Source: Ornithinimicrobium cerasi
GTDB taxonomy: Bacteria > Actinomycetota > Actinomycetes > Actinomycetales > Dermatophilaceae
Reading direction: 5' to 3'
Assembly (NCBI RefSeq): GCF_003702705.1
Contig: NZ_QZMN01000004.1
Coordinates: 186,001-250,000 of the forward strand
Length of the DNA: 64,000 nt
This document shows, piece after piece, positions 50,218 through 58,487 of the stretch. Position 1 is the first letter of the stretch; every line of letters begins with the position of its first letter. A program made the translations under genes and the position numbers. The notes under the pieces were generated by a model. The model was given only the letters and a program-made list of their open reading frames with translations. It searched no databases and had not been told where the DNA came from.

Positions 50218-50290
50218 GGGCCTGTAGCTCAGCTGGTAGAGCGCCGCGTTTACACCGCGTAGGTCGTCGGTTCGAGCCCGGCCGGGCCCA
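50218..50290 (+). tRNA. tRNA-Val (TAC), at left end of island 2
   Basis: A 73-base cloverleaf: acceptor GGGCCTG/CGGGCCC with one T-G pair, D arm GCTC/GAGC, anticodon loop TTTACAC (anticodon TAC) and T arm GTCGG/CCGGC. The 27-43 pair is C-T, a mismatch at the end of the anticodon stem. The 5' half is chromosomal; the last 46 bases lie in the attachment repeat. CCA is not encoded. Confidence 0.93.
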
Positions 50291-50291
50291 C
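50245..50291 (+). repeat. attL of island 2
   Basis: 47-bp sequence from the anticodon stem through the acceptor end of tRNA-Val plus one base. It is identical to 58441-58487. Confidence 0.92.
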
Positions 50292-50407
50292 CCATCACAG
50301 CAGGTCAGAAAACCGCAAAACACGAGGTCAAAGGGTGGTATTGCCCTTTTCAGACATTTGCTTGACGCTTCACCCACTCTGAGCAGCGATGCGAGACCCT
50401 GCCTACC

Positions 50408-50427
50408 CCGTTCGCACGCCGTTCGCA
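50408..50427. repeat. Left arm-type repeats CCGTTCGCA
   Basis: Two exact copies of CCGTTCGCA at 50408-50416 and 50419-50427, 11 bases apart (one helical turn). Matching repeats occur near the right end (58350-58369). They are likely integrase arm-binding sites. Confidence 0.65.
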
Positions 50428-50446
50428 TCAGGGTACGATGACCTAA

Positions 50447-50460
50447 GCACATCGATGTGC
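50447..50460. promoter_or_regulatory. Palindrome in the integrase promoter region
   Basis: GCACATCGATGTGC is a perfect 14-bp palindrome, 22 bases upstream of the integrase ATG and just after a possible -10 (TACGAT, 50434-50439). It is a candidate repressor operator controlling integrase expression. Confidence 0.5.
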
Positions 50461-50482
50461 AAGTCATAGACGGGAGCAGGAC

Positions 50483-51565
50483 ATGGCATCGGTCCACCCG
50501 AGGGGCAAGACGTGGGTCGTTAGGTACAGGACGCCACAGGGCACCAACGCTCAGAAGACCTTCAAGGGGTACAGGGAGGCTCAGGCGTTCAAGGCAGAGG
50601 TCGAGACGCAGACCAACAAAGGGACGCTGATCGATCCCACGTACAGACGCCTCACTTACGCCGACTGGCACGAGACGTGGATGACGCAGCGCCCAGACCT
50701 CAGGGAGAGCACCAGGGCGCGGGTGGAGGGGATCGCACGCGTCCACCTGCTGCCGACGTTCGGCCACCTGCCGGTGCAGCGCATCACGCAGCAGGACGTA
50801 CAGACCTGGGTGACGAAACAGCAGGTTGCGCCAGCCACAGTGAGACGCAACTATGGAGAACTGTCCAACTCGTTCACGGCGGCAGTGGCGGCAGGCATCA
50901 TCACTGTCTCTCCCTGCCGGGGGATCAGGCTGCCCAAGGTGCCCAGGGCTGGAATGGCGATCCTCGACCACGAAGAGATAGAGGCGCTTGCCGCGTGCAT
51001 CCTGCCCAGGTACAGGGCACTCGTCTACCTGTTGGCCTACGGAGGTCTGCGGATAGGGGAAGCGCTGGACCTCACCCCGGCTGACGTAGACCTGAAAAAG
51101 GGGACCGTGCGGGTTGACAGCACACTGACGATGGGTGCTGACGGCAGCCAGACCTCTGGCCGTCCCAAGAGTGATGCAGGCATGAGAACAGTCCCACTGC
51201 CCAGCAAGATCGTCAGCGTTCTCGCAGAGCACATGCAGACCTATCCGGCTGACTACGTGTTCACAGGTGGCAGGGGAGCGCAGTTGCATGTGTCCAACTT
51301 CGGGGAACGCACGTTCAAGCAGGCAGTAGCCAAGTGGAACGCTGTCAGGGAGACCCAGGCTCTACCGCCGTTGAAGCCGCGTGTCCATGACCTACGGCAT
51401 ACCGCTATCACTCATTGGATACGGCTGGGAGCAGACCTGCCGCGAGTCAAGACCTGGGCGGGGCACACGAACGCAGCATTTACCCTGGACCGCTATGCGG
51501 GTTACTTCCCCCAGGACGACAGCAAGTTCATGGACGCGCTTGACCAAGGCATCGGAGCGAGATAA
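50483..51565 (+). CDS. int: Tyrosine integrase of island 2
   Basis: An intact 360-residue tyrosine recombinase. An N-terminal arm-binding domain (GKTWVVRYRTPQGTNAQKTF) and a SAM-like core-binding domain (about 60-155) precede the catalytic domain with Arg in AYGGLRIGEALDL, the beta-hairpin Lys region, HDLRHTAITHW, the His of TWAGHTN and the nucleophile Tyr in LDRYAGYF. It should integrate and, with a directionality factor, excise the element at tRNA-Val. GGAGCAGG precedes the ATG. Frequent AGG arginine codons contrast with the host genes. Confidence 0.96.
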   Translation: MASVHPRGKTWVVRYRTPQGTNAQKTFKGYREAQAFKAEVETQTNKGTLIDPTYRRLTYADWHETWMTQRPDLRESTRARVEGIARVHLLPTFGHLPVQRITQQDVQTWVTKQQVAPATVRRNYGELSNSFTAAVAAGIITVSPCRGIRLPKVPRAGMAILDHEEIEALAACILPRYRALVYLLAYGGLRIGEALDLTPADVDLKKGTVRVDSTLTMGADGSQTSGRPKSDAGMRTVPLPSKIVSVLAEHMQTYPADYVFTGGRGAQLHVSNFGERTFKQAVAKWNAVRETQALPPLKPRVHDLRHTAITHWIRLGADLPRVKTWAGHTNAAFTLDRYAGYFPQDDSKFMDALDQGIGAR

Positions 51566-51984
51566 TGGAGACAGCAATCATCGCAGCACTGGCAGCAGTG
51601 CTGGGCGTGGTAATCGGCTCGCTACTGACTGAGCGACGGGAGCACCGAACGTGGCTCAGAGACCAGAAGATGCAGGTCTACTCCGAACTCATTGGGTTGT
51701 CGGAATACGCCGACAATATCAGAAGTGACGTCTGGGACGTGGATCGATTTAGGGAATATCAACAGAGGCACAACGACCTCCTGGCCCGGATAAGTCTGAT
51801 TGGTAGTCAAGAAATGGTGCTCGCGGCCGGTGACCTTCACCGACTGGGAGGGGAGGTCTACGCGAAGAAAGAAGAAGACTTGAAAAAGGCAGTTAATGCT
51901 TTCACGACACAACTGCTCAAAACAATTCAGATTGCGCGAAAAGAACTGGGCTTGCCTACTCACCGCATGCATTTTGACGAGTGA
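51565..51984 (+). CDS. Membrane-anchored coiled-coil hypothetical protein
   Basis: A 139-residue protein with a single N-terminal membrane segment (IIAALAAVLGVVIGSLLTE), then RREHRTWLRDQK and a long helical region likely to form a coiled coil (from about residue 30). No family is recognised beyond similarity of layout to small phage and island proteins with an N-terminal anchor. The ATG overlaps the integrase stop by one base, so it is co-expressed with the integrase. A role in superinfection exclusion is possible but unproved. Confidence 0.75.
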   Translation: METAIIAALAAVLGVVIGSLLTERREHRTWLRDQKMQVYSELIGLSEYADNIRSDVWDVDRFREYQQRHNDLLARISLIGSQEMVLAAGDLHRLGGEVYAKKEEDLKKAVNAFTTQLLKTIQIARKELGLPTHRMHFDE

Positions 51985-52045
51985 TGACGGCAGCAGCGGT
52001 ATGCTCATGCTGCACTGCTCCTTGCGCAGCCCGTGCGGCCAGCGC

Positions 52046-52080
52046 CAGAGAACCCCTAGGTAATCCCTAGGGGTTCTCTG
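52046..52080. terminator. Bidirectional terminator hairpin
   Basis: Perfect 15-bp inverted repeat CAGAGAACCCCTAGG / CCTAGGGGTTCTCTG with the 5-base loop TAATC. It lies between the convergent coiled-coil and lipoprotein genes. Confidence 0.85.
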
Positions 52081-52103
52081 CATACTGAGGAATGCTATCG
52101 CGC

Positions 52104-52550
52104 TTATTCGCTCATGCCCTCTAATGCCTTGTCCAGATTCCGCCTGTCGTAAGCACCAATGAGGAAGTTGTCTGCCTGATAGGCGTGGAACTCTTCGCCT
52201 GCCGTGTAGTCAGGAATGGCTACCTCGTCAGCAGACTGGAACACTAGAATCTCAATGTCCCCACAGTCCAGGTGACGCATCCCACCAATAGAGTCATGCT
52301 GGTCCGAACCCCAGGGGCACTCAGACAAACCAAGTTCCTTGGCCATGAGATTGGGTGAGTTCTCAAATGCACTCACATCAAGGTCCGTAGTGGCGTCCTC
52401 GTATGTCACGTCCCCACCGAATGACTGTGTGATGTACCTGTCTCCACTTGACTCCGGTTCGGCTGCCGCTTCGGGTTCGTCGCTGCCCCCGCAACCCGTC
52501 AGGGCTGCCATGGAAACCGTCACGAGTAGTGCCTTGAATGGCGCGTTCAC
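52104..52550 (-). CDS. Small secreted lipoprotein of island 2
   Basis: A 148-residue lipoprotein. The signal peptide (LLVTVSMAALTGCGG) ends in the lipobox LTGC; an acidic linker follows, and the mature domain contains two Cys (LSECPWGSD, HLDCGDIE) that may pair. The GTG start has AAGGGGA seven bases upstream. No family is recognised. Prophage lipoproteins often block superinfection by related phages; that is an inference here. It is transcribed against the rest of the element, suggesting expression in the integrated state. Confidence 0.75.
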   Translation of the reverse strand: MNAPFKALLVTVSMAALTGCGGSDEPEAAAEPESSGDRYITQSFGGDVTYEDATTDLDVSAFENSPNLMAKELGLSECPWGSDQHDSIGGMRHLDCGDIEILVFQSADEVAIPDYTAGEEFHAYQADNFLIGAYDRRNLDKALEGMSE

Positions 52551-52673
52551 GTCTGTCCCCTTTTCGTCGTCAATGACTGCTGTGCCCCACACTCTACAGG
52601 GCGGGGGTCTGGATGGTTCCCCACCGGCTGTATCAACCCAGAGCACCGGCCTAGCGCTCACCATCACGATCCC

Positions 52674-52773
52674 TGATGACTTGATGATAAGCCCGGTCTC
52701 ATGCGGAACGGCTGATGATAACGCTGATGACAAGTCTGATGACCTGATGATAAGACCGTGTCTCTGATGATAG
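52674..52773 (+). repeat. Left half of iteron-like array (TGATGATAA type)
   Basis: Seven copies of a 9-mer close to TGATGATAA start at 52674, 52682, 52713, 52725, 52737, 52745 and 52765. Several are 12 or 8 bases apart. The opposite orientation follows at 52884-52976. Repeats of this kind bind initiator proteins in plasmid and phage origins. Confidence 0.65.
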
Positions 52774-52883
52774 AGGAAGCCCAGCAAAAGACTCAGAAGA
52801 TAGTGATGTTAAAGAAGATAGAAGAATATACACACATATATCTACAGATACATCATCATCTACAGACAGACCTTCCCTCTATC
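52774..52883. other. AT-rich core between the repeat halves
   Basis: The segment between the two halves is strikingly A+T-rich for this genome (AGAAGATAGAAGAATATACA and CATATATCTACAGATACATC lie within it). This would fit a DNA-unwinding element. A reading frame could be drawn across it, but it has repeat-driven composition and no coding signature. Confidence 0.5.
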
Positions 52884-52976
52884 TTGTCATCACCTCTATC
52901 ATCAACCTTCGGGGTCTGTCATCACTCTTATCATCAACAGTTCCCAGTGATACCGGACTTATCATCACTATCATCG
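52884..52976 (-). repeat. Right half of iteron-like array (inverted)
   Basis: Six copies of the complement (TTATCATCA, with CTATCATCA, CTGTCATCA and TTGTCATCA variants) start at 52884, 52896, 52916, 52928, 52959 and 52968. They mirror the left half around the AT-rich core. Confidence 0.65.
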
Positions 52977-53241
52977 TCATCTACCCCCGGTCGGGGTGAT
53001 GAGAGAGTGTGCAGCCCGCTTATTCTCGCATTTCCGCGTGAGCAAGAAGGATTATTTTCGGCCGCTCCAGAATAGCGCCGGGTGTGATATACTATGGTGT
53101 AGAGGTTGGGAACCGAACTATCGGCCCTGACGTCTAAGCAGTACAGGTCAGGAAATGACCACTTTCTCAATGAGTCCGTCAACACTCGGAGGCGTAAAAC
53201 GGTTTAGATCTTGTTCAAAAGTTGAATTTCTGTTCTCACCG

Positions 53242-53283
53242 CCCTCTCCCCCTTGGTCTTGACGGACTCCCAGGGGGAGAGGG
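53242..53283. other. Strong hairpin upstream of the replication gene
   Basis: Perfect 12-bp stem CCCTCTCCCCCT / AGGGGGAGAGGG with an 18-base loop, about 50 bases upstream of the small ORF that precedes the ATPase. No T-run follows. It may be part of the origin, an RNA control element, or a weak terminator. Confidence 0.5.
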
Positions 53284-53336
53284 CACTTCCTTGTCTGAAT
53301 ACATTTAGTGCGATAGCACAAGGAAGAGAGAACAGA

Positions 53337-53381
53337 ATGAACAACGAGAATAAGCAAGTATTGCCGGGTGATGAGTCATGA
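53337..53381 (+). CDS. 14-codon ORF overlapping the RepA-like gene
   Basis: ATG at 53337 encodes MNNENKQVLPGDES and its TGA overlaps the next ATG (ATGA). It has a purine-rich site AAGGAAGAGAGAA upstream, while the downstream gene has no site of its own. It may therefore serve as a translational coupling leader. Coding status is uncertain because of its size. Confidence 0.4.
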   Translation: MNNENKQVLPGDES

Positions 53382-54544
53382 ACCTTGACCTATTCACGAT
53401 CAAGAACACACCCATCAGGAAGACGAAGTGGATCATCCCCGGGGTGATGGAGTCAGGACGCTACCACCTGATCTATGGGGACAAGGGCGCGGGAAAGACA
53501 ACCTTCACATGCGGCTACCTGATCCCAGAAGCAATGGACGGCGGGATAGAGCGCATCGTCTATATCTCGCCGGGTGAGGAAACGACAGCAGCAGACCTGC
53601 TGGTCTACGCAGCAGTTCACGGATACGATCCGTCACAGGTTCTTTATTTCAGCGACGGTGTGGAAATGTCATTCGCTGCTGGCACCGGCGATGAGATTGA
53701 CGAATCCTCGGGAGTACCGCAGTTCACCGGGGAAGGTAAAGAGCGAGAGAACGAACTCATCCGCCTGAACATGCACCCTGAGGCGCTGACGGACAAGAAC
53801 AACGTCAACAGTCGGAACAAATCCTTCTATTTCCCTGTGGACGTCCTGGCGCTGATGAAGAACATCCGTGATGATGTTCCCACCCTCTATATCGTTGAAG
53901 GACTTGACGAAGTTGTTGGTGCGGATGTTCTCAGGTCGTACGGAGGAACCGATACGGTGCAGAACCGTTCATGGAAGAACGTAATCCGTTATATTGAGAA
54001 TCTGTTGAGCGACAACGACGTGTTCATCGACGTGACGCACACCAAGAAGGGCGACGGTAGCCAGATTAAAGGTTCCACCGGACGTTTCGACAAGGCGCGC
54101 CACGCACTGCGTATCAATGGTCATAACAAGACTGGTGAACGCTACACCACTGTCGTGGGAGAGGGTAACGCCACCGGCAGGGAATGGCGTAACGAGCAGA
54201 TCATTCTGGTTCGTGACGTGGAGGAGCAGGACATTCAAAAGGCGTTCGGTCATCCTGTCACACACCGCGTTCCCCAGAAGGTGTTCTCCGGGTTGGAGTC
54301 GGTAGCAACGGATATGACCCTTCCTGATCTGCTCACCCTGGACTGGTCTGAGCCACGTTCGACCGCTGACATTGTTGTAGCCCTGGGGCTACGTGAGGAA
54401 AACGGCATCAAGGCAAATGACGCACGCATGTGGGAGAAGGCACGCAAGAACCTTCCCGCGAACGTCCGAATCAGCAGCGTCAAGCGTGGTCTTTGGTCCT
54501 GGGAGAACTGGGCAGAGTTTCAGGATGAGGATGACGCAGCATGA
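53378..54544 (+). CDS. RepA-like hexameric ATPase/helicase
   Basis: A 388-residue RecA-fold ATPase of the AAA_25/RepA type. Walker A is YGDKGAGKTTFTCGYL (about residues 33-48), a Walker B-like strand is PTLYIVEGLDEVVG, and the segment DVTHTKKGDGSQIKGSTGRF with KARHALRI is characteristic of RepA/Gp4-like helicases. The C-terminus (about 315-385) looks like a winged helix. It probably unwinds DNA for replication from the nearby repeat array. The start overlaps the 14-codon ORF and its stop overlaps the next gene. Confidence 0.85.
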   Translation: MNLDLFTIKNTPIRKTKWIIPGVMESGRYHLIYGDKGAGKTTFTCGYLIPEAMDGGIERIVYISPGEETTAADLLVYAAVHGYDPSQVLYFSDGVEMSFAAGTGDEIDESSGVPQFTGEGKERENELIRLNMHPEALTDKNNVNSRNKSFYFPVDVLALMKNIRDDVPTLYIVEGLDEVVGADVLRSYGGTDTVQNRSWKNVIRYIENLLSDNDVFIDVTHTKKGDGSQIKGSTGRFDKARHALRINGHNKTGERYTTVVGEGNATGREWRNEQIILVRDVEEQDIQKAFGHPVTHRVPQKVFSGLESVATDMTLPDLLTLDWSEPRSTADIVVALGLREENGIKANDARMWEKARKNLPANVRISSVKRGLWSWENWAEFQDEDDAA

Positions 54545-54861
54545 CCGCCATCCAGTCAAGAGCGGTAGCGCCGCTGAGACGCACGGACAAATCTAGGCAT
54601 CTTGGGACACTCTGGCAATTGTTCAGACGCTCACAGAGGCACACAGACCCCGTACAGGGCACGTTTGCCGGGTGTCCAGGGTGTATGACAGCAGACGTTG
54701 CCGGGTACTGGAAGGAAGCAGCAGCCGGTGACCCTGAGGACGCTCTCTATGCAGGTCTGTCAGCACGATGGGCAGGCATGGAGGTCGGGCACGCAGCACA
54801 CGACACAACTATGGCGAGAGCCGGAAAGGTAGGACGGAAATGGACAAGCACGAAGAATTGA
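54541..54861 (+). CDS. Hypothetical protein of island 2
   Basis: A 106-residue protein, start overlapping the ATPase stop (ATGA). A basic N-terminus with a short helix (LGTLWQLFRRSQRH) is followed by GTFAGCPGCMTADVAGYW; a lone CxxC could bind metal only as part of a larger site. The C-terminal part is helical. No family is recognised. Tight packing in the replication operon makes it a real gene. Confidence 0.65.
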   Translation: MTAIQSRAVAPLRRTDKSRHLGTLWQLFRRSQRHTDPVQGTFAGCPGCMTADVAGYWKEAAAGDPEDALYAGLSARWAGMEVGHAAHDTTMARAGKVGRKWTSTKN

Positions 54862-55022
54862 TGCAAGCACACCTAGAGGCAGCGCGGATTCGCGTAGCAG
54901 GCCGAAAGTGGTACAGGGAGAAGTCCCTAGCAGCCCTGAAAGACCTAGAGGGCAAGCTCCATCCCAAGATCATCCAAGCCATACGTGAAGGGCTTGACGA
55001 CGAAGGGGAGGAAGAGGAATGA
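54840..55022 (+). CDS. Small acidic helical protein of island 2
   Basis: A 60-residue protein beginning MDKHEELMQAHLEAARIRVA and ending in a very acidic tail (DDEGEEEE). Predicted as mostly helical. It overlaps the previous gene by 22 bases and its stop overlaps the next ATG. The site AGGACGG lies close upstream of the ATG. Unknown function; small acidic phage proteins often bind DNA-binding partners or mimic DNA, which is speculation here. Confidence 0.6.
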   Translation: MDKHEELMQAHLEAARIRVAGRKWYREKSLAALKDLEGKLHPKIIQAIREGLDDEGEEEE

Positions 55023-55204
55023 ACGAGAGCGAGCCAGTCGAAGCCCTGGATCAAATGATCTGGGACATGGAGCACGGTCATACCGAGGACTTCGGTCAGA
55101 TCACCGGCACTGTGGTCGGGTCAACACCTATTGTCACGATGCAGGGCCATGAAATCTTCGCTTACGATATGCCTATCTTCGGATACTGGTCAGACTGCGA
55201 GTGA
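55019..55204 (+). CDS. Small hypothetical protein of island 2
   Basis: A 61-residue acidic protein (MNESEPVEALDQMIWDMEHG onward), start overlapping the previous stop (ATGA). GGGGAGG lies upstream of its ATG inside the previous gene. It ends before the long structured region upstream of the capsid gene. No family is recognised. Confidence 0.6.
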   Translation: MNESEPVEALDQMIWDMEHGHTEDFGQITGTVVGSTPIVTMQGHEIFAYDMPIFGYWSDCE

Positions 55205-55557
55205 GGGATTTCCCTAATGCGAACATGTGTGGGAAAATAGAGTAACAATTGCTGTCAGGCAATTTATGGATCGCCGTCTAATGTCAATAGCCCGGTGACT
55301 CCACGCCGGGGGTGGAATGAAAGTTCTACCTCCGGCAAAACAAAGTCCACTCAGGACTCTAAACAGAGGTCAGGGCCAAGGAAGCCCATTGAATTTCCTG
55401 TGCACAGGTTCTTACCGAAGTCAGCCTTGAATGAATCGGGATACAGAGCGGATTGCAAGCCGCTTTTTTAAGTGACGCTGTAGCGTCCGTGTCCAGCGAG
55501 ACACGTAACTAAACTATTCATTTAAGGAACCCGTACGTAGGAAAACGTGCGGGATGC
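55205..55557 (+). promoter_or_regulatory. Structured leader before the capsid gene
   Basis: 353 bases without a gene. Several hairpins can be drawn: AATTGC/GCAATT near 55246, a terminator-like AGCGG/CCGCT with TTTTTT (about 55448-55471), GACGCT/AGCGTC and CGTGTC/GACACG after it, and CCCGTACGT/ACGTGCGGG (55530-55553) next to the ATG. The T-run hairpin would end replication-operon transcripts. The last one covers the capsid ribosome site. Late control, perhaps responding to a helper, is plausible. Confidence 0.5.
55448..55471 (+). terminator. Intrinsic terminator before the capsid gene
   Basis: AGCGG and CCGCT arms around an 8-base loop, followed by a run of T (GCTTTTTT). It lies between the replication genes and the capsid gene, about 90 bases before the latter. 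It would keep the capsid silent unless read through or separately promoted. Confidence 0.6.
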
Positions 55558-56355
55558 ATGACACTAACAACTACAAATTCAGCTGAGGTTTTTCGTCCGA
55601 ACGTGACTGCGTTCGTTGCCTCCGACGTTCTCAATGATGAACTGCTGACGAAGATCACCACCGTAGCCGGTGCAGTAGAGGGCGATGAGCCTTCACTTCT
55701 AGTCGGTTACACACCTGACGTTGGAGCAGCCTTCTACGCAGAAGGTCAGGAAATCACCGCTCAGACCCCGACATTGGGGCAGTGGGAAGTCAAGACCCAT
55801 AAGGTCGCTGCCCTGGTCAACGTCACCAACGAACTGGACAGGGCTGGCAACGCTGGCAACGTCCTGGCAGAGGGTATGCGTAGGGGACTTGCCCGTAAGG
55901 CAAATGAGGCACTGTTCAACAACGCTTCTGCTCCTACCGGCATCCTCAACGACAGCGACCTTGCAGCCGCTACCGCTCTAGGCACGTCCCTAGACTCGTT
56001 CAACACTGCCTACTGGTCCATTGCTGAGACTGGCGTAACCCCCAACTACATCGTGGGTTCGCCTTCCGCTATGGCTGCTCTGGGCAGCATCAAGGCTGCT
56101 ACCGGCAGCAACCAGCCACTGGTGGACGACATGACCGTCATGGGTCTGCCGGTGTACGTGAGTACGGCTATGGCTGCTGACCGATTCCTGATCGGCCACA
56201 CCAGCGCTGTCGTCTCTGCTGTAGGTCCGTTGCGACTGGCTAAGAGTCAGGATGCAGCGTTCGCCTATGACGCCACCAGCCTGCGAGCAACGTGGCGCTT
56301 TGGTTGGGCTGTCGTACAGCCTGACCGACTAGCAGTCATCAGCACCGCTGCCTGA
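55558..56355 (+). CDS. HK97-fold phage major capsid protein
   Basis: A 265-residue major capsid protein of the short actinophage type. It starts directly at the N-arm (no scaffolding domain or prohead protease site), with E-loop-like strands AAFYAEGQEITAQTPTLGQW and VKTHKVAALVNVTNELDRAG, the helix GMRRGLARKANEALFNN, the A-domain PNYIVGSPSAMAALGSIKAA and the closing strand GWAVVQPDRLAVI. It should form the icosahedral shell. No other head gene lies nearby. The ATG at 55558 follows a hairpin that could hide its ribosome site. Confidence 0.9.
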   Translation: MTLTTTNSAEVFRPNVTAFVASDVLNDELLTKITTVAGAVEGDEPSLLVGYTPDVGAAFYAEGQEITAQTPTLGQWEVKTHKVAALVNVTNELDRAGNAGNVLAEGMRRGLARKANEALFNNASAPTGILNDSDLAAATALGTSLDSFNTAYWSIAETGVTPNYIVGSPSAMAALGSIKAATGSNQPLVDDMTVMGLPVYVSTAMAADRFLIGHTSAVVSAVGPLRLAKSQDAAFAYDATSLRATWRFGWAVVQPDRLAVISTAA

Positions 56356-56419
56356 TATCTCCTTAGATATCAAACCCCGGTGTTCCCCACCCTCGCTACT
56401 CATCCGGTGGGGGTGGGGA
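56355..56419 (+). terminator. Tandem hairpins after the capsid gene
   Basis: GATATC/GATATC directly after the stop and a 9-bp stem TCCCCACCC / GGGTGGGGA (56384-56392 and 56411-56419). Together they probably end the capsid transcript. Confidence 0.65.
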
Positions 56420-56446
56420 CTAAAACTACACGGATGAGAGAAGTGG

Positions 56447-56731
56447 ATGAGGTTTATGAATACCAAGATGTGCAGCCGCTGCAAGCAGAGCAAAGACCTG
56501 TCGGCATTCCATCGTGACAAGCACAAGACAATGGGAGTGAGCAGCATGTGTGCTGACTGTAAGAACGCAACAGACAGGCAGAAGCGTGCAGAGCGTCCAC
56601 CTAAACCACGACTGCCGGAAGAGCATGGAACCGTCAAGCAGTATGTCCGTGGTTGTAAATGTCACGGTTGCAGACGAGCCAAGCGTCAGCAGAACGCAAT
56701 GCGCTATCTGGGTGGGCACCCATCCCTCTGA
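56447..56731 (+). CDS. Small double zinc-finger protein (HNH/EndoVII-like fragment)
   Basis: A 94-residue protein with two Cys-rich parts: MCSRCKQSKDLSAFHRDKHK with MCADCKNATDRQK, the treble-clef start of phage HNH/endonuclease VII-like proteins, and HGTVKQYVRGCKCHGCRRAK, a common actinophage motif. The nuclease His-Asn-His core is not complete, so it may be a DNA-binding or packaging helper. ATG 56447 or 56456 can start it. HNH proteins usually sit beside terminase genes; here no terminase follows. Confidence 0.72.
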   Translation: MRFMNTKMCSRCKQSKDLSAFHRDKHKTMGVSSMCADCKNATDRQKRAERPPKPRLPEEHGTVKQYVRGCKCHGCRRAKRQQNAMRYLGGHPSL

Positions 56732-57116
56732 AACCTTGAAGCGGTCTCAACACGCCGAGGAGATCGGCACACCTCCCGGGCTGTATTCCACATGAATAGG
56801 ACGCTACTGACGTTGTGAGGGCATTCTTATGCTCGACAGGACTCCATATCAGAGCCGATTTTCACAAACAGCCGTTTTGGCCCCTTGAAATCCGTTGTGC
56901 TGCAATAGTATTCAAGCACCCAAAATGACCGTTTCTGTAGGAAATTCGTAGCGCCTCGCAGGGTGGAAATGTGCCTCTGGAATTTTTTGCCGTCTATATA
57001 AGATGACCGTCCTTGCGCTACAGCCTCTTCGGGCGCACTATCGTAATAGATGGTGACTCTTAGAGAAGCCGGTCTGTACGTGATAGAACGGTTTTATCAT
57101 TTCAGTTGCTTGGAGG
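56732..57116. other. Non-coding gap in island 2
   Basis: 385 bases between the zinc-finger gene and the convergent membrane gene. No coding frame with support, no RNA I recognise. The G+C content is low compared with the host and GACCGT occurs twice (56926, 57004 regions). It may have lost a gene or contain promoters. Confidence 0.4.
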
Positions 57117-58019
57117 TCATCGGCGCTGGCTTAGCCTCTTCCTATTCCGATTCTTCAGGCGTCGAAGACGAGCATCCACGGGCAGGGTCTGGGCGGGAGG
57201 CCTCGCTAATTGCGATTGCAGGCGGCCGTCGTGATCGTACATGCTCAGTACAGCCAGGAAGTTGGCACGGCGAATTGTTATCTTCCGCATTTCGTATCTG
57301 CTGGCCACCATCTCTCGCTCGGTCAGGTACAGTTTCCTGAGTAGAGATTGGTGTTCCGCTCTGGTTTCGTCCATCCGGCGGAAGGTTTCAGCAACCGACA
57401 CATCAGGCTGGCCCTCAGAACTGAGGGGACTTCGGGGCGGTTGCCATGCTGTAATCCATTCGTCCATTTCTTCGAGATACTTGGTGAGACGGCTTATGCG
57501 TTGTGCGTTTGCCAGCCGAGAATCTTCGGTTCGGGTCAGATGGGCAAGACTTGCGCGACCCCGTTCTCTGTCTGCGATGGCCTTCTCATACTGTTCTGCG
57601 AACCGGAGAACCATGGCACGTTGCTTCTTGCTAATGGGCCGCCTGCGCCTCGGTTCGTATCGCCCGAGCGCCCAACGAAGGAACGGCATAGGGTTACGTG
57701 TCGTAAGCCACGCTACGGAATCACCAGCGGCCAACGCTACCGATGTAAAAGCAAAAGGGCCAATAATCCCGACGAGCATGTTTATCGCAGTGACAAAAGG
57801 TACCCAGCGAAAGCCGCTGACGTCCTGGCCCTGTAGTGACTGTTCGGTCAGGTAAAAGGTTCCCCATATCCCTGCAACGATTGCAAACGAAAACAAGCCT
57901 TGAAAAGTTCGTAAGGCGGGGTGCGCGGTTGACGCGACGTATAGTGTCTGACGCAGAACGAGCGTGTATGCAATAAGCAGGGTGGCCATGATGGTGGAAT
58001 AGTAGATCCAGTGATCCAT
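57117..58019 (-). CDS. Four-helix membrane protein with coiled-coil cytoplasmic tail (candidate cargo)
   Basis: A 300-residue protein. Its N-terminal half holds about three or four transmembrane segments (YYSTIMATLLIAYTLVL, LFSFAIVAGIWGTFYL, FVTAINMLVGIIGPFAF), and the C-terminal half is a charged helical region (from RRRPISKKQRAMVLRFAEQY to RMDETRAEHQSLLRKLYL) likely to form a coiled coil. No family is recognised. It is transcribed towards the capsid genes, next to the right attachment site, the usual place for satellite cargo such as anti-phage genes. I chose ATG 58019 over upstream ATGs because the membrane segment starts there. Confidence 0.7.
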   Translation of the reverse strand: MDHWIYYSTIMATLLIAYTLVLRQTLYVASTAHPALRTFQGLFSFAIVAGIWGTFYLTEQSLQGQDVSGFRWVPFVTAINMLVGIIGPFAFTSVALAAGDSVAWLTTRNPMPFLRWALGRYEPRRRRPISKKQRAMVLRFAEQYEKAIADRERGRASLAHLTRTEDSRLANAQRISRLTKYLEEMDEWITAWQPPRSPLSSEGQPDVSVAETFRRMDETRAEHQSLLRKLYLTEREMVASRYEMRKITIRRANFLAVLSMYDHDGRLQSQLARPPAQTLPVDARLRRLKNRNRKRLSQRR

Positions 58020-58103
58020 ATCTTCACTCTCTGATGCGCTCGCAGGGCAGTATTCAGGTTCGACGTGCGTGAGTCCATGCAACGAGCCTCTCGCCCGTTT
58101 AGC

Positions 58104-58274
58104 ATGCAGACCATGGAACTCTACTTCTGGTTCTACCTCATCGGCGCTGTGCTGGTCATCGTGGCTGTCCCGGCTGTCGTCCTGTTCCTCTGGCGGATCA
58201 GGCGCTCAACTGGACGTTCTGATCGAGCAGGGGTCGGGACCGAAGTGAAGCCTCCCCGATCTTCCTTCCGGTGA
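58104..58274 (+). CDS. Small single-span membrane protein
   Basis: About 56 residues with one strong membrane segment (FWFYLIGAVLVIVAVPAVVL) and a basic cytoplasmic tail WRIRRSTGRSDR. It is divergent from the large membrane gene. Start choice among three ATGs is uncertain, and no good ribosome site is seen. It is supported mainly by its composition. Confidence 0.45.
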   Translation: MQTMELYFWFYLIGAVLVIVAVPAVVLFLWRIRRSTGRSDRAGVGTEVKPPRSSFR

Positions 58275-58349
58275 CCGGTTGGTCGGGTGTGACTGGCGTG
58301 TTCGCGACGGGGTAGGTTTGACCCCATATCAGCACCTCAGACGTGTGCG

Positions 58350-58369
58350 CCGTTCGCAAAGCGTTCGCG
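58350..58369. repeat. Right arm-type repeats CCGTTCGCA
   Basis: CCGTTCGCA at 58350-58358 and GCGTTCGCG at 58361-58369, again 11 bases apart, mirror the pair near the left end. Likely integrase arm sites. Confidence 0.6.
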
Positions 58370-58413
58370 TTTTGGGGTCTAGACACTTGGCTGACGCGCG
58401 TAAGCGCAGGTCA

Positions 58414-58486
58414 GGGCCCGTGGCGCGGTTGGTAGCGCAGCGCGTTTACACCGCGTAGGTCGTCGGTTCGAGCCCGGCCGGGCCCA
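58414..58486 (+). tRNA. tRNA-Val (TAC)-like gene at right end, element-supplied 5' half
   Basis: The right junction also forms a full cloverleaf: acceptor GGGCCCG/CGGGCCC paired perfectly, D arm GCGC/GCGC, anticodon TAC, the same T arm. Its first 27 bases come from the element, so the attP lay within a tRNA-Val-like gene. Position 14 is G instead of the nearly universal A, which could weaken it; but its anticodon stem (G27-T43) is better than that of the left copy. Function is uncertain. Confidence 0.7.
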
Positions 58487-58487
58487 C
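58441..58487 (+). repeat. attR of island 2
   Basis: Exact 47-bp copy of 50245-50291. The chromosomal sequence that once followed tRNA-Val resumes after it, with the Nif3-like gene's GTG starting at the next base. Confidence 0.92.

What the first reader, a model, noticed from the sequence alone, without database searches (positions are those of the whole stretch)
50245..58487. Compact phage satellite that encodes only a capsid protein
Between exact 47-bp tRNA-Val repeats lie an intact integrase, a RepA-like ATPase with an iteron-type array, small overlapping genes and a single HK97-fold capsid protein. I see no terminase, portal, protease, tail or lysis gene. Capsid-forming satellites (cf-PICIs) described so far carry packaging and head-assembly genes with the capsid; a lone capsid gene beside a replication module is different. 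It may redirect a helper's portal, terminase and tails into its own shell, perhaps one sized for about 8 kb of DNA. All genes appear open, which argues against a decayed prophage.
Basis: partly seen in the sequence, partly recalled or inferred. Interest (0 to 1): 0.9.

Follow-up and report, generated by a model that had tools for sequence, protein, structure and literature searches.

The report
Phage satellite bringing only its shell
An 8.2-kb mobile DNA element in an actinobacterium carries its own integration gene, replication gene and virus shell gene but none of the other virus parts, and it belongs to a widespread family of such elements that probably borrow the rest of the virus particle from a helper phage.

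Summary
Window 50245-58487 is an integrated element (repeat spacing 8,196 bp) between exact 47-bp tRNA-Val repeats: tyrosine integrase, iteron origin, RepA/AAA_25 ATPase, coupled small genes, one HK97-fold capsid and a small EndoVII/HNH-like protein. Ten ORFs scanned gave no terminase, portal, protease, connector, tail or lysis hit. Two other species of the genus carry the same integrase-origin-Rep-capsid order at the same tRNA (capsids 51-53% identical; one is frameshifted), each with its own iterons in the same inverted layout. Related capsids sit in small elements across actinobacteria: portal in 0 of 44 loci, large terminase in 1, a scaffold gene just upstream in 33. Most fall in two capsid clades apart from a capsid-forming-PICI-like clade with TerL and portal. 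Twelve deposited 10.9-11.1-kb Mycolicibacterium "phages" have a related capsid; in the two read, a scaffold precedes it and no TerL or portal was found. Best reading: a shell-only satellite that makes its own small heads and borrows portal, terminase and tail. Helper use is inferred. "Integrase plus capsid" candidate PICIs were already reported in Mycobacterium (2023), so this is a new variant of a known kind. The window's subclade also lacks a recognisable scaffold.

The parts
50245..50291 (+). left 47-bp repeat (attL core) inside tRNA-Val(tac) 50218-50292; the 5' half of that tRNA is of the host type
   Evidence: in the 27 unoccupied genus loci the 5' half has 0-3 mismatches to this copy and 6-8 to the right copy
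50483..51565 (+). tyrosine integrase, 360 aa
   Evidence: PF00589 5.5e-21, phrog_1 4e-65; 76% identical in L014 and L015
51565..51984 (+). 139-aa protein with an N-terminal hydrophobic stretch, likely membrane-anchored cargo; overlaps the integrase stop
   Evidence: no confident family; weak kin in L014 (35% over 78 aa, 2e-08)
52104..52787 (-). ORF with an internal lipoprotein-type signal (LTGC; motif recognised by eye); cargo
   Evidence: sequence; no family
52673..52975 (.). putative replication origin: 4 TGATGATA iterons (52682-52765), AT-rich centre (74% AT at 52800-52849), 3 inverted copies (52897-52960)
   Evidence: same layout with different iterons in L014 and L015
53378..54544 (+). 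RepA-like AAA_25 ATPase, 388 aa, candidate initiator/helicase
   Evidence: PF13481 4.3e-07; 48-50% identical in L014 and L015; no relative at E 1e-5 in 50,697 phage records
54541..54861 (+). 106-aa ORF, ATGA-coupled to Rep
   Evidence: no family
54840..55022 (+). 60-aa highly charged small protein (43% D/E/K/R)
   Evidence: no family
55019..55204 (+). 61-aa protein, ATGA-coupled
   Evidence: no family
55558..56355 (+). HK97-fold major capsid protein, 265 aa, without the HK97 delta (scaffolding) domain
56447..56731 (+). 94-aa EndoVII/HNH-like protein
   Evidence: phrog_1035 endonuclease VII 2.3e-09; an HNH gene follows the capsid in L014 (phrog_338 1.6e-16)
57117..58082 (-). 321-aa protein with hydrophobic stretches, likely membrane protein; cargo
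   Evidence: no confident family
58441..58487 (+). right 47-bp repeat (attR core) inside tRNA-Val(tac) 58414-58487; the 5' half of that tRNA is element-specific and rebuilds a tRNA gene

Best explanation
The element is an integrative phage satellite of a 'shell-only' type. Shown by sequence: it sits in tRNA-Val beside its own integrase, with the cross-over in the anticodon-arm region, carries its own Rep and an iteron array, and encodes an HK97-fold capsid protein while no portal, terminase or tail gene was found. Inferred: when a helper phage replicates, the element excises, replicates from its origin, and its capsid protein assembles small heads around the helper's portal. The helper's terminase then packages about one element length (8.2 kb), and helper connectors and tail complete the particle. 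This would both pay for transfer and divert helper portals and tails. Most relatives also bring a scaffold-like protein, so the unit that travels is a procapsid (scaffold + capsid); in this three-species subclade the scaffold is missing or unrecognised.
For: Same integrase-origin-Rep-capsid order in three species at one site, capsids about 52% identical, dN/dS 0.29 for window/L014. Inverted iteron layout kept while the iteron sequence differs per element. In 44 lone-capsid loci: portal 0, protease 0, connectors 0, TerL 1, scaffold just upstream 33, tyrosine integrase 34. Pfam TerL/portal searches of 40 genomes with capsid hits put none beside a lone capsid, while the cf-PICI-like loci have both. 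Two lone capsid clades versus one cf-PICI-like clade. Element sizes 7.0-10.9 kb, median 8.8 kb, for 23 of 32 loci that could be sized. One relative is an apparently circular contig of 8,992 bp. Twelve deposited 10.9-11.1-kb Mycolicibacterium phage records have a related capsid; the two read have a scaffold hit upstream of it and no TerL or portal hit, and their capsids nest in the second clade. The top row of the fold comparison is the cf-PICI EcCI2 capsid, tied with encapsulins and HK97.
Against: No particle, excision, helper or packaging was observed. No scaffold was found in the window subclade (scaffold HMM best E 8.9), so self-assembly is unproven. The resident prophage shares no exact 16-mer with the element, so no helper or shared packaging site is identified. 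One of the two same-site relatives, L015, has a frameshifted capsid, and L075 and L077 are broken. Four scans of 2.9 million IMG/VR contigs found no relative, though they seek short exact peptides only. Encapsulins tie with phage capsids in fold score. The absence tests with session HMMs lean on the cf-PICI-like members they were built from, and the Pfam searches missed TerL-like ORFs that other models found (resident prophage, L060, L059). Lone capsids are not one clade on the tree: the label needs 3 changes.
Confidence: 0.68

Rival explanations
1. Capsid-poison satellite: the lone capsid protein does not build its own heads but co-assembles with or blocks helper capsids, protecting the host or resizing helper heads.
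For: The window subclade lacks a recognisable scaffold, protease and connectors, so a stand-alone head is not guaranteed; remodelling of helper capsids is known in SaPI and PLE satellites (abstract starts of PMC12409344 and PMC10945586 in listings).
Against: In 33 of 44 loci a scaffold-like gene lies just upstream of the capsid, which a poison would not need; the 11-kb relatives were deposited as phage genomes.
Confidence: 0.17
2. Remnant of a capsid-forming PICI or prophage that lost terminase, portal and connectors and is now decaying.
For: cf-PICI-like elements of similar size exist in the same order; a TerL ATPase-domain ORF persists in L060 and L059; three lone capsids are broken (L015, L075, L077).
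Against: Lone-capsid loci fall mostly in two large capsid clades spanning several families; gene order is kept and the capsid is open in two of three species at this site; dN/dS was 0.29-0.75 in the 7 pairs tried; att sites, Rep and origin are intact.
Confidence: 0.08
3. Domesticated or encapsulin-like shell: the capsid forms a protein compartment for the host or the element, not a DNA head.
Against: The profile search of PDB sequences listed 12 chains, all named as capsid or major head proteins and none as encapsulin; neighbours are integrase, Rep and HNH; scaffold-like genes in relatives.
Confidence: 0.05

Closest known systems
Mycobacterium 'candidate PICIs' (integrase + major capsid; phiRv1 and phiRv2 are among them), PMC10654092
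   Same: Integrated elements, often at tRNA genes, with integrase and capsid, some with helicase and scaffold; not full prophages. The Mycobacterium, Mycolicibacterium and Mycolicibacter loci found here (L091, L094, L095, L097, L099-L101) have a scaffold hit upstream of the capsid.
   Different: [quoted passage not shown] some carry terminase. Absence of portal and TerL as a trait of whole capsid clades, the origin structure and a scaffold-less subclade are not stated in the section read. The paper's own elements were not compared letter by letter here.
Capsid-forming PICIs (cf-PICI)
   Same: Satellite that makes its own HK97-type capsid; the cf-PICI EcCI2 capsid is the top row of the fold comparison.
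   Different: cf-PICIs encode capsid, protease, portal, connectors, TerS, TerL and HNH (as summarised in PMC10690885); in the window only capsid and a small HNH/EndoVII-like gene were found.
Mycolicibacterium aichiense 'phages' WillG, Alyssa1 and ten others (OR387110-OR387121)
   Same: 10.9-11.1 kb; in WillG and Alyssa1 a scaffold hit lies directly upstream of a capsid that nests in the second lone-capsid clade, and no TerL or portal hit was found.
   Different: Serine integrase as annotated; they add TerS, an adaptor, a stopper/closure protein and a short tape-measure protein (annotation of both; PHROGs for WillG).
SaPI-type PICIs
   Same: Att-flanked island with own Rep and an origin with iterons around an AT-rich centre (SaPI origin layout recalled, from no call); helper particle use inferred.
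   Different: SaPIs redirect the helper's capsid (listing) rather than encode one.
Streptomyces satellites MulchRoom and MiniFlayer (PMC10690885)
   Same: Actinobacterial satellites with own capsid and scaffold.
   Different: They also encode TerS, TerL, portal and a head-tail adapter (passages read).
pCD630-type Clostridioides plasmids
   Same: Small replicon; pCD630 (7.9 kb) is annotated with helicase, HNH and one phage capsid gene.
   Different: Plasmid in another phylum, capsid about 23% identical to that of L069; no integrase or scaffold annotated.

Membership tests
Capsid-forming PICI (cf-PICI) | Encodes major capsid protein | tested here: met
Capsid-forming PICI (cf-PICI) | Encodes portal, protease and head-tail connectors | tested here: not met
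   no hit in ten element ORFs; no session-HMM hit in the window locus
Capsid-forming PICI (cf-PICI) | Encodes large and small terminase and HNH | tested here: not met
   no terminase hit; only a small EndoVII/HNH-like protein
[quoted passage not shown]
   no capsid or Rep relative in 50,697 phage records at E 1e-5
PICI (SaPI-type) | att-flanked island with integrase and own Rep/origin | tested here: met
   origin activity itself not tested
PICI (SaPI-type) | Induction, excision and packaging by a helper phage | not testable with these tools
   needs culture; no helper identified
PICI (SaPI-type) | Uses the helper's capsid, without a capsid gene of its own | tested here: not met
   own capsid gene present
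Decayed prophage | Remnants of terminase, portal or tail genes, or same-site capsid relatives inside full prophages | tested here: not met
   none found; same-site relatives L014 and L015 are the same compact element
Encapsulin | HK97-fold shell that encloses a protein cargo | tested here: inconclusive
   fold scores tie; cargo not identifiable by sequence here

The most novel reading that the evidence does not exclude
There is an old, class-wide lineage of satellites in actinobacteria whose transferable unit is just a procapsid (scaffold + capsid, or capsid alone as in this window). They swap the shell of a helper phage while keeping the helper's portal, terminase and tail. That would mean that portal-shell compatibility is loose enough for one capsid lineage to serve many helpers, and that head size alone, near 8-10 kb, enforces which genome is packaged.
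Probability: 0.5. Interest if true: 0.84.

Novelty: new variant of a known kind. Interest (0 to 1): 0.7.

Why it matters
Known satellites either remodel the helper's capsid or bring nearly the whole head with its packaging motor. A lineage that brings only the shell would fill the gap between them, show how modular tailed-phage assembly is (foreign portal in a foreign shell), and give a test of what sets head size and packaging choice. It could also explain small 'integrase + capsid' islands that satellite finders miss (the Mycobacterium paper says its four mapped examples were not found by SatelliteFinder).

Tried and rejected
Encapsulin: neither excluded nor favoured by fold. Hidden scaffold in the window: the scaffold HMM against ORFs of 35 aa or more of window, L014 and L015 gave only one chance hit at E 8.9. 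Conserved DNA upstream of the capsid: window, L014 and L015 do not align convincingly there. Known RNA in the element: Rfam gave the two tRNAs and two hits below their gathering scores. Resident prophage as helper by shared DNA: nothing beyond the control stretch. Anti-phage cargo: PADLOC gave only two weak hits, both to Rep. IMG/VR contigs: four scans by short peptide patterns, no relative. Plasmids: one distant match (23.6%, on a 386-kb Tsukamurella plasmid) for the window capsid. Literature: the listings of ten full-text searches showed no description of shell-only satellites as a class or of the M. aichiense 11-kb phages; the library holds open-licence papers only, and one search returned nothing. 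Sequence search of the window capsid alone against PDB found nothing meaningful; the profile did.

Rows dropped: one search examined 32 lone loci; 23 sizes were used and 9 dropped (L016 and L062 without a consistent repeat; L053, L054, L063, L066, L073 without a clustered tyrosine integrase; L075 and L077, broken, with 2.3- and 5.2-kb repeats). For L014 the 15-bp tRNA repeat and for L068 the 25-bp repeat were chosen over longer ones by position; L070 rests on a 15-bp repeat. Of 8 cf-PICI-like loci 5 were sized. Trees leave out L015, L075 and L077 (broken) and L059; one search also leaves out L084, L087 and the resident prophage capsid. Not fetched: 18 weaker places (E 4.5e-18 to 9e-11) and, apart from L090 (not analysed), the new places. 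L010, L011 and L023 (weakest hits) were not classified. Searches used 40 genomes chosen from the hits; the genomes of ten of the 44 loci (L091, L093-L101) were not searched with those Pfam families.
Full report
WHAT IS THERE. The window holds an element between exact 47-bp direct repeats at 50245 and 58441, 8,196 bp apart, each the 3' part of a complete tRNA-Val(tac) gene. Left to right: tyrosine integrase; a 139-aa protein; a lipoprotein-like gene on the minus strand; an AT-rich iteron array; a 388-aa RepA/AAA_25 ATPase; three small genes coupled by overlaps; a 265-aa HK97-type capsid; a 94-aa EndoVII/HNH-like protein; a membrane-protein-like gene on the minus strand. Ten chosen ORFs were scanned against Pfam, PHROGs and NCBIfam; no terminase, portal, protease, connector, tail or lysis hit appeared. 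Some further short ORFs were not scanned.

INTEGRATION SITE. In the genus, 32 of 32 genomes hold the right-flank gene. Loci came back for 30: the window's own and 29 others. Of these 29, 19 have a single tRNA-Val an estimated 17-170 bp from the end of the peroxiredoxin gene, i.e. an empty site; two (G117, G121) are occupied; 8 have another gene arrangement. In the 27 unoccupied loci the tRNA's 5' half has 0-3 mismatches to the window's left copy and 6-8 to its right copy. The two other occupied sites likewise have an odd 5' half at the right end. So the cross-over lies in the anticodon-arm region and the element supplies a 5' half that rebuilds a tRNA gene.

THE THREE-SPECIES SUBCLADE. G117 (L014) and G121 (L015) carry the same order at the same site: integrase 76%, Rep 48-50%, capsid 51-53% identical to the window. 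All three elements have 55-56% GC. Between integrase and Rep each has a cluster of short repeats, a gap of about 0.1-0.2 kb, and an inverted cluster: TGATGATA in the window, TGARGATA in L014, GGTGATAR in L015 (L014 also has one stray copy on either side). In the window this is 7 copies against 0.10 expected and at most 3 in 500 shuffles. Kept layout with changed sequence is what a Rep-specific origin predicts. An HNH gene follows the capsid in L014 and in L015. The L015 capsid is frameshifted in the genome as held, either decay or a sequencing error.

A WIDE FAMILY. A single-sequence search found capsid relatives in 11 of 187 family genomes; a profile found them in 49 of 396 genomes of the order at E 1e-10 and 23 of 394 of the class at E 1e-20. 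These counts include the own genome and cf-PICI-like or prophage capsids. A named-genome scan gave 12 loci in Mycobacterium, Mycolicibacterium, Mycolicibacter, Gordonia, Dietzia, Brevibacterium, Leucobacter and Microbacterium. Two architectures appear. Eight loci are cf-PICI-like; by session HMMs, int, HNH, TerL, portal and Ad1 in 8 of 8, protease and scaffold in 7, Hc1 in 5. Exemplar proteins (L085, and HNH of L082) were confirmed with PHROGs; no tail gene is evident in the maps, but the rest of those loci was not scanned. The others are lone-capsid elements: integrase, a varying replication gene (D5 primase, DUF3987, DUF3631 and AAA_25 in four scanned exemplars), usually a scaffold, then the capsid. 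In 44 lone-capsid loci: portal 0, protease 0, Ad1 0, Hc1 0, TerL 1, scaffold within 1.6 kb upstream 33 (36 anywhere within 9.5 kb), tyrosine integrase 34, HNH 8. Serine-type integrase ORFs appear in five (L016, L063, L066, L073, L095). The HMMs were built from these same loci, TerL and portal mainly from the cf-PICI-like ones, so they find near kin best. The scaffold assignment rests on PHROG phrog_4708 hits for 2 of 13 members (2.8e-08), for the WillG protein (1.6e-04) and on position.

INDEPENDENT ABSENCE TEST. Pfam searches of 40 genomes found TerL_ATPase at 10 places in 8 genomes, portal PF04860 at 2 in 2, and PF05133 at 16 in 10; none lies beside a lone capsid. Sensitivity is limited: PF03354 missed the resident prophage's TerL, which PHROGs shows, and missed the 249-264-aa TerL ATPase-domain ORFs of L060 and L059. 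L060's matches the 239-aa family phrog_7579 end to end, so it may be a stand-alone protein and not a stump.

TREE. Capsids fall into a cf-PICI-like clade (8 rows, 100/100), a lone clade of 25 that holds the window (99/99) and a clade of 17 (96/90) of which 15 are lone and 2 are the 11-kb phages; L069 and the long-branched pCD630 stand apart. A first tree agrees in outline but supports the second lone clade less (85/71). The label 'lone' needs 3 changes, so one origin is not shown; it is strongly clustered (shuffled mean 10.1). Capsid dN/dS (NG86) for seven chosen pairs was 0.29-0.75, which suggests purifying selection; dS was 0.38-1.58, so the estimates are rough.

SIZE AND MOBILITY. Att repeats sized 23 of 32 lone loci at 6,997-10,912 bp, median 8,825; 5 of 8 cf-PICI-like loci were 9,883-10,461 bp. 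One genome (G351) has three lone loci, two of them whole contigs of 8,580 and 9,087 bp. The latter has a 95-bp terminal overlap (an 8,992-bp circle) and carries a plasmid Replicase, HNH, scaffold and capsid, with no integrase hit. By recalled figures for HK97 (T=7, about 40 kb) and volume scaling, 7-11 kb would fit a T=3 head; this is inference only.

PARTICLES IN A RELATIVE. Twelve GenBank phage records from Mycolicibacterium aichiense, 10,866-11,078 bp, have capsids 35-36% identical to that of L020. The annotation of two was read (WillG, Alyssa1). Both have a scaffold HMM hit (7.3e-22, 2.5e-21) directly upstream of the capsid and no TerL or portal HMM hit. Annotation gives both a terminase, adaptor, stopper and tape-measure gene; PHROGs supports TerS, Ad1, Hc1 and tape measure for WillG. 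Their capsids nest in the second clade. They were deposited as complete phage genomes from soil; I saw no paper on them. They suggest that members of this capsid lineage do end up in particles.

MECHANISM. Shown by sequence: an intact site-specific integration system, Rep beside an iteron array, and a conserved capsid. Inferred: helper-triggered excision and replication, assembly of element shells on helper portals, packaging by helper terminase, addition of helper tails. A packaging role for the HNH-like protein (as in cos phages, recalled) is a guess. No helper is known. A resident siphophage-like prophage on contig C66 (about 47.8 kb to at least 80 kb) has an integrase of the invertase type, helicase, TerL, HNH, head morphogenesis, scaffold, capsid, adaptor and tape-measure genes and a weak portal hit (1.2e-5), but no exact 16-mer in common with the element, against 4 in a 40-kb host control.

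NOVELTY. 'Candidate PICIs' in Mycobacterium, described as phage-like regions with integration machinery plus a major capsid gene, with phiRv1 and phiRv2 among them, are the nearest published kind (PMC10654092; section 9 and passages read). cf-PICIs and MulchRoom/MiniFlayer encode portal and TerL (passages of PMC10690885). The window element is therefore a new variant, with two points I did not find in the listings of the ten searches: portal/TerL absence as a trait of whole capsid clades, and a subclade with a capsid but no recognisable scaffold.

Noticed in passing
L069 (G351:C35, 9,087 bp) and L057 (G351:C39, 8,580 bp): Stand-alone contigs with HNH, scaffold and capsid; L069 closes by a 95-bp overlap to an 8,992-bp circle with a plasmid Replicase: a plasmid form of the same shell module.
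   Followed up: partly
L101:10332-12116 (and a 628-aa ORF at the same place in L100): Mycolicibacter lone-capsid elements carry a large gene after the capsid; in L101 it is a full minor tail protein (phrog_110, 4e-181), as if the satellite also swaps one tail part. The L100 ORF was not scanned.
   Followed up: partly
L060:7489-8238 and L059:7445-8239: TerL ATPase-domain ORFs (249 and 264 aa) in two elements without a portal hit; L060's matches the 239-aa phrog_7579 family end to end.
   Followed up: partly
G021:C1:84814-85668 and 94566-95420 (L083): Two copies of a cf-PICI-like element 9.75 kb apart, apparently in tandem.
   Followed up: no
G000:C66 from about 47,800 to at least 80,000 (L088, L089): Resident siphophage-like prophage in the window's own genome; candidate but unproven helper.
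   Followed up: partly
L136 (NC_008226.2, pCD630) and 13 further Clostridioides plasmid records: Plasmid records, mostly of about 8 or about 16 kb, matching the L069 capsid; the one read (pCD630) has helicase, HNH and one capsid gene: possibly a parallel shell-only element in another phylum.
   Followed up: partly
window 52104-52787 (-) and 57117-58082 (-): Lipoprotein-like and membrane-protein-like cargo genes of unknown role; no defence-family match.
   Followed up: partly
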